Position numbers and translations under genes: made by a program. A stretch of 64,000 nt of DNA, taken from positions 62,001 through 126,000 of the forward strand of contig JBDKTA010000004.1 in NCBI GenBank assembly GCA_039680605.1. Reading direction: 5' to 3'. This DNA comes from Planctomycetaceae bacterium. GTDB lineage: Bacteria; Planctomycetota; Phycisphaerae; SM23-33. Shown here one piece after another: positions 12,258-61,735 of this stretch (the first letter of the stretch is position 1; every line of letters starts with the position of its first letter). Under the pieces are notes generated by a model. That model was given only the letters and a program-made list of their open reading frames with translations, searched no databases and had not been told where the DNA came from.

Positions 12258-12281
12258 AGGACGCCTCTCGCTGCAGCGGTG

Positions 12282-12423
12282 TAGAGGCACCAAGTATTTA
12301 TCAAAGCAGTGGTTTGGCTTTGATGAATACTTGCGCCGACAGGTGGAAACGGCCTTAAATGAAGAAGTAATTCAAGAAAACGAATTACTTCTTCATTTAG
12401 TGCCTCCGCCGCGACTTCCCCCC
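12282..12423 (+). repeat. Cloverleaf-forming structured repeat, copy 1
   Basis: Shares its architecture with 61469-61626. Hairpin 1 pairs 12292-12307 with 12317-12332 (16 bp with one G-T pair), a short stem pairs 12341-12344 with 12352-12355, and hairpin 2 pairs 12357-12373 with 12382-12398 (17 bp, perfect). The outer right arm (from 12400) matches copy 2 almost exactly, but the left arm is degenerate here except for GAGGCAC. It lies just after the reductase gene and just before the leaderless promoter of the next gene. It could be a non-autonomous mobile element or a transcribed RNA. Confidence 0.85.
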
Positions 12424-12436
12424 ATAACTGAGGCGA

Positions 12437-12442
12437 TATAAT
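12437..12442 (+). promoter_or_regulatory. TATAAT box 8 bases before ATG (leaderless promoter)
   Basis: Perfect -10 hexamer followed by 8 bases and the ATG at 12451, with no ribosome-binding site. Transcription would start at or next to the start codon. The end of the structured repeat covers the -35 position. Confidence 0.6.
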
Positions 12443-12450
12443 CCTTCACG

Positions 12451-13248
12451 ATGATCATGCGATGGGCGCTCATATTGGCCGCGGCTGCAGCCTGGGGCTG
12501 CAACTCCCAACCGTACATGACGGCGGCGCGGCAGGAACTGGGCCTGGTGATCGTGCTGTCGGGCATCGAGGGGCGCAGCGTCCTGACTGACGACATCGCC
12601 CGCGGGCTCAACAAGGGCGGCGTCGAGTACGCCATCACCGTCCACCCCTGGACCAGCGACTGGGGCGGACCGCTCTATAACCTCCGCGCCCAGGAACGCA
12701 ACCGCCGCCAGGCGGAAAAACTCGCCGCCCGCATCGAAGAATATCAAATGGACCATCCCGACCGCCCGGTCTTTCTCGTCGGGCACAGCGGCGGTTCGGC
12801 CATCGCCGTCTGGACGGCGGAGTCGCTCAGCCCCAGCCGCCAGGTCGAGGGCATCGTGCTGATCGCCCCGGCCCTGTCGCCGGCATATCCGCTGGACATG
12901 GCCCTGGTGCATAGCCGCCGCGGCATCGTCAACTTCTATAGTGAACTGGACATGCTGCTGGGCGTCGGGACGGCGGTGGCGGGCACCATGGACGGCCGCT
13001 ACACATCCTCGGCCGGGGCGGTGGGCTTCAGGTCAAGCCCGGGCGAAGAAGGGATGGCATACGAGAACCTCTTCGAGATCGGCTGGCGGCGGGAGATGGC
13101 CTTGACGGGCAACATCGGCGGGCACTTGTCCAGCACCACCACGTACTTCGTCAGCACGTATGTGGCCCCGCTGATCACCGCCCCAGGGTGGAACCAGACC
13201 TTGATGGACGACCTGGTTCGCCGCCGCCTGCCCCAGCCTCCCCCGTAG
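12451..13248 (+). CDS. Alpha/beta-hydrolase-fold lipoprotein
   Basis: 265 aa. Short signal sequence ending at a Cys near residue 17 (AAAAWGC), a probable lipoprotein. The core (VFLVGHSGGSAIAVW) is the nucleophile elbow GxSxG of alpha/beta hydrolases, with Ser as nucleophile. A HGxGG-like oxyanion region is replaced by VLSGIEGRS. The C-terminal His is probably in GGHLSS near residue 225. Serine hydrolase with unknown substrate, exported and membrane-anchored (inference). The alternative start at 12457 is in the same frame. Confidence 0.85.
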   Translation: MIMRWALILAAAAAWGCNSQPYMTAARQELGLVIVLSGIEGRSVLTDDIARGLNKGGVEYAITVHPWTSDWGGPLYNLRAQERNRRQAEKLAARIEEYQMDHPDRPVFLVGHSGGSAIAVWTAESLSPSRQVEGIVLIAPALSPAYPLDMALVHSRRGIVNFYSELDMLLGVGTAVAGTMDGRYTSSAGAVGFRSSPGEEGMAYENLFEIGWRREMALTGNIGGHLSSTTTYFVSTYVAPLITAPGWNQTLMDDLVRRRLPQPPP

Positions 13249-22872: not shown

Positions 22873-22947
22873 GGTGGCTGTAGCTCAGTTGGTTAGAGCA
22901 TCTGGTTGTGGTCCAGAGGGTCGAGGGTTCGAATCCCTTCAGCCACC
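22873..22947 (+). tRNA. tRNA-His (GTG)
   Basis: Full cloverleaf: acceptor stem GTGGCTG/CAGCCAC, D arm GCTC/GAGC, anticodon stem TCTGG/CCAGA around a TTGTGGT loop with GTG anticodon, T arm with TTCGAAT. The extra 5' G (22873) opposite C at 22947 is the identity mark of tRNA-His. CCA is not encoded. Confidence 0.97.
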
Positions 22948-61446: not shown

Positions 61447-61468
61447 CGCCTAAACGCTCCTCAGCCAC

Positions 61469-61626
61469 GGGGGAAAAGTCGCGGCGGAGGCACCAAGTAT
61501 TTATCAAAGCCGTTGTGTGGCTTTGATGAATACTTGCGCTGGTCAGGGGTACGCGGCCCCAATGAAGAAGTAATTCACACAACGAATTACTTCTTCATTT
61601 AGTGCCTCCGCCGCGACTTTTCCCCC
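61469..61626 (+). repeat. Cloverleaf-forming structured repeat, copy 2 (intact)
   Basis: 158 bp. Outer stem of 25 perfect pairs (61469-61493 with 61602-61626). Inside, hairpin 1 (61495-61510/61520-61535, 16 pairs with one G-T), a small stem (61546-61550/61556-61560) and hairpin 2 (61561-61576/61584-61599, 16 pairs). The whole would fold as a closed cloverleaf. Same orientation as copy 1 and also just after a plus-strand gene. Confidence 0.9.
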
Positions 61627-61735
61627 TGCAACTGAGCAGATACCAATAAACGCGCCTAGAATTTTTCGTGTGGGTTCCACGGTTGTGGAGCCCGGCTGCT
61701 CGAACAACAGGGGATCAAGCTCAGGAGGGGAACAC

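What the first reader, a model, noticed from the sequence alone, without database searches (positions are those of the whole stretch)
12282..12423. A repeated intergenic element that folds as a closed cloverleaf
Two copies (here and 61469-61626) share a 25-bp outer stem (intact in copy 2), two 16-17-bp hairpins and a small third stem, with nearly identical hairpin sequences but different loops and a differing third stem (GGGGT/GCCCC versus AGGT/GCCT). The stem keeps pairing while its sequence changes, which is a sign of selection on structure. It looks like neither a known RNA family nor a plain REP palindrome.
Basis: partly seen in the sequence, partly recalled or inferred. Interest (0 to 1): 0.78.

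Follow-up and report, generated by a model that had tools for sequence, protein, structure and literature searches.

The report
Mobile DNA that folds like cloverleaf
The repeated cloverleaf is a short, gene-less jumping DNA element, scattered in about 40 complete or partial copies through this bacterium's genome and probably moved by the transposase (the enzyme that moves such DNA) of a larger relative, rather than a new RNA gene; its unusual feature is an internal set of hairpins whose two arms change together.

Summary
The window holds two copies, the genome about 34 full-length copies plus partial ones, and two other genera of the same bacterial family about 20 each. It is absent from the other 32 sampled genomes of the family and from 394 of 397 genomes of the class. 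The fold is far beyond chance (z = -9.6 and -13.5), and matched changes on both arms occur in all three genomes. It is not an RNA gene but a miniature transposable element (MITE). Intact copies begin GTAA or GTAT and are flanked by exact 8-bp target duplications: 8 copies, against 0 of 1,502 swapped-flank controls. The ends nearly match the terminal repeats of full-length IS66-family elements found in two other genera of the same family (22 of 24 bases for the best pair). Non-standard pairs show no clear strand bias, and copies have no preferred orientation to genes, so selection on an RNA is not supported. Arms look homogenised at DNA level, by matched run lengths and in one copy a matched 19-nt insertion. 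The third genus keeps only the outer stem and one hairpin, with no duplication found. What keeps the inner hairpins is unknown.

The parts
61469..61493 (+). copy 2, left arm of the outer stem (inner part of the terminal inverted repeat), GGGGGAAAAGTCGCGGCGGAGGCAC
   Evidence: perfectly complementary to 61602-61626
61494..61536 (+). copy 2, hairpin 1: CAAGTATTTATCAAAGCC / GGCTTTGATGAATACTTG, loop GTTGTGT
   Evidence: inverted repeat of 18 nt, 94% complementary, 7 nt apart; sequence largely kept in genus g24
61546..61560 (+). copy 2, third, variable stem GGGGT / GCCCC
   Evidence: fold; differs between subfamilies and carries long nested hairpins in G023
61561..61599 (+). copy 2, hairpin 2: AATGAAGAAGTAATTC / GAATTACTTCTTCATT, loop ACACAAC
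   Evidence: inverted repeat of 16 nt, 100% complementary; matched changes in other copies
61602..61626 (+). copy 2, right arm of the outer stem
61455..61468 (+). copy 2, outer left end region (...CTCCTCAGCCAC), decayed relative to GTAATGCCTCAGTCAY of intact copies
   Evidence: comparison of flanks of all copies
61627..61643 (+). copy 2, outer right end; read inward GTATCTGCTCAGTTGCA
   Evidence: comparison of flanks of all copies; a canonical 8-bp duplication is not present at this copy
12273..12290 (+). copy 1, decayed left arm of the outer stem (GCAGCGGTGTAGAGGCAC)
12291..12333 (+). copy 1, hairpin 1: CAAGTATTTATCAAAGC ... GCTTTGATGAATACTTG
12357..12398 (+). copy 1, hairpin 2: AAATGAAGAAGTAATTC / GAATTACTTCTTCATTT
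12400..12423 (+). copy 1, right arm of the outer stem (GTGCCTCCGCCGCGACTTCCCCCC)
12424..12439 (+). copy 1, outer right end ATAACTGAGGCGATAT (read inward ATATCGCCTCAGTTAT)
   Evidence: matches the GTATCCCCTCAGTTAY end of other copies

Best explanation
The element is a non-autonomous transposon (MITE) with IS66/ISBst12-type ends. An IS66-family transposase supplied in trans recognises ends of the type GTAAnnnYTCAGYC at both sides of a ~180-bp (up to ~350-bp) palindromic body and inserts it with an 8-bp target duplication. Shown: ends, duplications, copy numbers, lack of a gene inside, near-identity of the ends to those of full-length IS66 elements in related genera. Inferred: that such a transposase moved it in this lineage, because neither this genome nor G023 now has a detectable one. 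The body folds on itself, and the two arms of each stem are repeatedly made identical, most simply by template switching or mismatch repair across the hairpin during replication (inferred); this would produce the matched changes. Why the two inner hairpins keep their sequence between genera is not shown. My best guess is that they are part of what keeps a copy active, for instance a fold that brings the two ends together or a protein-binding site.
For: About 34 full-length copies and several halves in one genome. Exact 8-bp direct repeats adjoining ends that start GTA on both sides: 3 copies in G000 and 5 in G023, against 0 of 1,122 and 0 of 380 swapped-flank controls; further near-perfect cases, and L010 whose left end is mutated, and a 261-bp copy with TGAAGAAA on both sides. 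IS66-transposase loci in two other genera of the family have ends GTAACTCTTCAGCCGTCTGCAACG, 1.6 kb apart (L204, L206); the G023 element end is GTAACACTTCAGCCGTTTGCAACG. L206 has a single 526-aa ORF that passes NCBIfam's IS66 cut-off. Published ISDge4, ISBst12 group: ends GTGACTACTCAGCA / GTAACTGCTCAGCA, 8-bp duplication (PMC12898284). Patchy range: 3 of 35 family genomes, no others among 397 of the class. Homogenised arms: matched A/T runs of 4 and 4 in 18 copies, 3 and 3 in 6, unequal in 7; alternative outer blocks TGCAGAAG or GCTTCAAG mostly matched, and one 19-nt insertion on both sides of hairpin 2 (L170).
Against: No IS66 transposase was found in G000 (95% complete) or G023 (86% complete), so the mobiliser is not seen beside its substrate. 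Most copies in G000 have one or both ends decayed; only 6 of 34 keep GTA on both sides. The two window copies have no canonical duplication. G005 copies share the inner core but no IS66-type ends or duplications were found there. L204 and L206 themselves show no 8-bp duplication. No empty site in a close relative could be compared, since no other genome of the same genus was found among the relatives.
Confidence: 0.85

Rival explanations
1. A structured RNA (regulatory or non-coding) that happens to be carried on, or to have been multiplied as, a mobile element; the stems are selected as RNA.
For: Stem columns vary six times less than unpaired columns (0.030 against 0.183 mean minor fraction in G000). 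Pairs with changes on both sides: 5, 9 and 12 in the three genomes. A G-T pair at one place in hairpin 1 recurs in two genera. By cells, G-T breaks exceed A-C (57 against 36, p = 0.04).
Against: Counted by column events the strand bias vanishes (32 against 25, p = 0.43). Copies sit in all four gene orientations (10, 9, 8, 7). G005 lacks the first hairpin. No Rfam match. Target duplications show the unit is a transposon.
Confidence: 0.1
2. A REP/BIME-type repeat moved by a REP-associated Y1 transposase (RAYT), with the two hairpins as inverted REPs.
For: Two inverted hairpins with GGAG-like sequence at their feet; 15 Y1 transposase matches in the genome.
Against: None of the Y1 loci held carries the element's stems or terminal repeat at close identity. 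REPs are 20-40 bp palindromes (PMC3733652 abstract); this element is ~180 bp with long inverted repeats and 8-bp duplications.
Confidence: 0.03
3. A MITE of another DDE transposase family that also makes 8-bp duplications (not IS66).
For: No IS66 transposase in G000 or G023; ends in G000 fit IS66 less closely than those in G023.
Against: 22 of 24 terminal bases in a G023 copy equal those of IS66-family elements in the same bacterial family, and ISDge4 has the same end motif and duplication length.
Confidence: 0.08
4. Assembly artefact of hairpins.
For: Two G023 copies at contig tips are perfect palindromes that include flanking sequence (L144, L146).
Against: These two were left out. The window copies and nearly all others lie inside contigs with different sequence on each side.
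Confidence: 0.01

Closest known systems
ISDge4 / ISBst12 group of the IS66 family (Deinococcus geothermalis; PMC12898284)
   Same: End motif GTAACTGCTCAGCA / GTGACTACTCAGCA and 8-bp target duplication
   Different: ISDge4 is autonomous, with a 449-aa transposase; the element here carries no gene and has an inner palindromic body
IS66-family elements in the same bacterial family (L204 in G021, L206 in G001)
   Same: Terminal repeat GTAACTCTTCAGCCGTYTGCAACG differs from the G023 element end GTAACACTTCAGCCGTTTGCAACG in one or two of 24 bases
   Different: 1.6 kb with an IS66 transposase gene; those two genomes have no copies of the miniature element by model R1
QMITE2 of Coxiella burnetii and other prokaryotic MITEs (review PMC10969869)
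   Same: Short, gene-less, 23-29-bp inverted repeats, 7-9-bp duplications, transcripts that would fold strongly
   Different: Here the body has two extra sequence-conserved hairpins shared by two genera, matched arm evolution in three, and nested palindromes in the loops
REP/BIME repeats with RAYT transposases (PMC3733652, PMC2817692)
   Same: Intergenic, palindromic, high copy
   Different: Longer, long inverted repeats, 8-bp duplications, no linked RAYT

Membership tests
[quoted passage not shown]
   ~150-bp core, ~180 bp with ends; about 34 full copies in G000, about 20 or more in G023 and in G005
[quoted passage not shown]
   25-bp inner arms plus outer ends GTAATGCCTCAGT / GTATCCCCTCAGT
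[quoted passage not shown]
   8 bp; 8 exact cases against 0 of 1,502 controls. Not met for G005 copies
[quoted passage not shown]
   IS66 elements L204 and L206 in sister genera match the G023 ends closely, the G000 ends loosely; none in the same genome
IS66 family, ISBst12-type ends | 5'-GTAA-type ends and 8-bp duplication | tested here: met
IS66 family, ISBst12-type ends | Moved by an IS66 transposase | not testable with these tools
   needs a transposition assay
Structured RNA family | Match to a curated RNA family | tested here: not met
   no Rfam match at gathering score
Structured RNA family | Strand-specific pairing (G-U tolerated, A-C not) | tested here: inconclusive
   32 against 25 column events, p = 0.43; 57 against 36 cells, p = 0.04
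REP/BIME with RAYT | Linked Y1 (RAYT) transposase gene flanked by the repeat | tested here: not met
   15 Y1 matches in G000, none with the element's sequences at close identity in the DNA held around them

The most novel reading that the evidence does not exclude
The inner cloverleaf is a functional module in its own right, recognised as folded single-stranded DNA or as RNA, which has been captured by IS66-type ends in two genera and kept with other ends in a third; small palindromes insert by preference into its loops.
Probability: 0.17. Interest if true: 0.65.

Novelty: new variant of a known kind. Interest (0 to 1): 0.4.

Why it matters
It shows how matched changes in the arms of stems, usually taken as a mark of a functional RNA, can arise in a transposon whose arms seem to be copied from one another. 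The three genera give a natural data set to separate the two: matched run lengths, a matched 19-nt insertion, and no clear strand bias. It also adds an undescribed MITE family with IS66-type ends in an uncultured bacterial family; I found no report of a MITE with ISBst12-type ends in the library searched, though that library is incomplete.

Tried and rejected
Rfam, gathering and permissive: nothing convincing. RAYT linkage: none. Kissing loops: the loops of hairpins 1 and 2 are complementary over 9 nt in 7 copies (GTTGTGT / ACACAAC with closing bases) but over only 2-7 nt in the other 25, so a kept loop-loop contact is not supported. Plasmid and phage collections: no match. Viral contigs with a hairpin-1-like palindrome: two hits with unrelated surroundings; taken as chance. 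Public genome contigs with an exact hairpin-1 pattern: none. Autonomous element in G023 between two distant ends: ordinary genes lie there, no transposase. Autonomous element in G000: the terminal patterns lie at copies or decayed halves only. Crude gene calls in these G+C-rich genomes flag some copies as inside ORFs, probably often spurious antisense frames, so the intergenic counts (23 of 34 in G000, 18 of 22 in G023, 3 of 20 in G005) are only rough. The protein search with the L206 transposase found nothing in the three genomes, but had no positive control among them; the family search with PF03050 did.

Full report
What is there. Copy 2 in the window (61469-61626) has a perfect 25-bp outer stem that encloses an 18-bp hairpin (h1), a short third stem and a 16-bp hairpin (h2); copy 1 (12282-12423) has the same inner hairpins but a decayed left arm. 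The folds are 10-13 standard deviations better than shuffles. Rfam does not know it.

How common it is. A DNA search of the whole genome (G000, 5.23 Mb) gave 73 alignments, which reduce to about 34 full copies, several halves and a few solitary ends. Sixty relatives gave one weak DNA match. A covariance model built from 33 copies found about 20 or more copies each in G023 and G005, two other genera of the family, and nothing in the other 32 family genomes or in the rest of 397 genomes of the class (stricter filters there).

The ends. Aligned flanks show that the repeat runs about 16 nt further out than the 25-bp stem: GTAATGCCTCAGTCAYGGGGG on one side and, read inward, GTATCCCCTCAGTTAYGGGGG on the other. 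In G023 the ends are GTAAGAGTTCAGCC and GTAACTATTCACCC or GTAACACTTCAGCC. Exact 8-bp direct repeats sit right outside these ends in 3 G000 and 5 G023 copies; pairing the left flank of one copy with the right flank of another never gives 8 of 8 (0 of 1,122 and 0 of 380). Other copies give 7 of 8, or 8 of 8 with one mutated end. This is the signature of transposition.

Which transposase. ISDge4, of the ISBst12 group of the IS66 family, has ends GTGACTACTCAGCA and GTAACTGCTCAGCA and the 8-bp duplication CCTCGATG (PMC12898284). A search of the bacterial family for DDE_Tnp_IS66 found loci in 13 of 35 genomes. Two of them, L204 and L206, have terminal repeats GTAACTCTTCAGCCGTYTGCAACR on both sides, 1.6 kb apart, though without an 8-bp duplication; L206 has one 526-aa ORF that passes NCBIfam's IS66 cut-off, and the L204 ORF is 80% identical to it over its length. 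The G023 element end GTAACACTTCAGCCGTTTGCAACG differs from these repeats in one or two bases of 24. The G000 ends fit less closely. Neither G000 nor G023 has a detectable IS66 transposase, so the link to the mobiliser is by sequence of the ends, not by linkage.

Matched changes. In all three genomes some stem pairs change on both sides (5, 9 and 12 pairs). Examples: h2 G-C to A-T in four G000 copies; outer-stem T-A to C-G in three; alternative outer blocks TGCAGAAG or GCTTCAAG in G023; and in L170 (G005) a 19-nt insertion on both sides of h2. Run lengths match too: A4 with T4 in 18 copies, A3 with T3 in 6, unequal in 7. Stem columns vary about six times less than unpaired columns in G000.

RNA or DNA? 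If one strand were selected as RNA, G-U should be tolerated and A-C avoided. By column events the two are about equal (32 and 25, p = 0.43); by cells G-T is more frequent (57 and 36, p = 0.04), but related copies are not independent. Neighbouring genes show no preferred orientation. Matched insertions and run lengths are easier to explain by copying from arm to arm in a DNA hairpin than by separate compensating mutations. I therefore read the covariation as arm homogenisation, with some constraint on the source copies. That last step is inference.

Variation of the body. G023 keeps h1 (AGTATTTATCA) and h2 (AAATGAAAAA-CAATTC) in sequence, although the outer stem has changed. In G023 the third arm often holds a long nested hairpin (GGGTGGCACGGTCAAG ... 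CTTGACCGTGCCACCC), and the h2 loop holds ACCTGCCTGCCGGCAGGCAGGT or a longer hairpin. G005 keeps the outer stem and a diverged h2, but its h1 region does not pair consistently and no duplications were found. So 'cloverleaf' describes two of the three genera.

Verdict. A new MITE family with IS66/ISBst12-type ends and an unusually structured body. Interest is moderate: the kind of element is known, the arm-to-arm covariation and the conserved inner hairpins are the unusual part.

Noticed in passing
L183, L185, L186-L188, L191, L192, L196-L199 (G023): The third arm often carries a long nested hairpin GGGTGGCACGGTCAAG...CTTGACCGTGCCACCC, itself with further hairpins in its loops; the small palindrome CCTGCCTGCCGGCAGGCAGG sits in at least two different loops, as if palindromes insert into hairpin loops.
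   Followed up: partly
L170:1282-1466 (G005): Hairpin 2 has a 19-nt insertion on each side of the stem, complementary to each other but for one base: an insertion in one arm seemingly copied to the other.
   Followed up: partly
L155, L157, L159, L162, L164, L165, L168-L170 (G005), about 40-60 nt left of the core: A shared hairpin GTTTAGCSGGCGACGGAACGTCGCC (or a G+C-rich variant) lies upstream of many G005 copies; whether it is the element's own end or a separate repeat is unclear.
   Followed up: no
L184:932-1091, L181:1033-1106, L190 from 220 (G023): Other small palindromic units with ends GTACGYGTTTAGCC, 73-160 bp or more, without the cloverleaf core: probably further MITE families.
   Followed up: no
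L144 and L146 (G023 contig tips): Copies at contig tips are perfect palindromes including flanking sequence, most likely assembly fold-backs at the hairpin.
   Followed up: partly
window 61512-61518 and 61577-61583: The loops of hairpins 1 and 2 are exactly complementary (GTTGTGT / ACACAAC); 7 of 32 G000 copies keep 9 nt of complementarity with the closing bases, the others do not.
   Followed up: yes
window 12430-12451: The right end of copy 1 (...CTGAGGCGATATAATCC) creates a TATAAT just upstream of an ATG at 12451; a possible promoter effect, untested.
   Followed up: no
window 22874-22947 (+): A tRNA gene, the only Rfam match in the window at gathering score.
   Followed up: no
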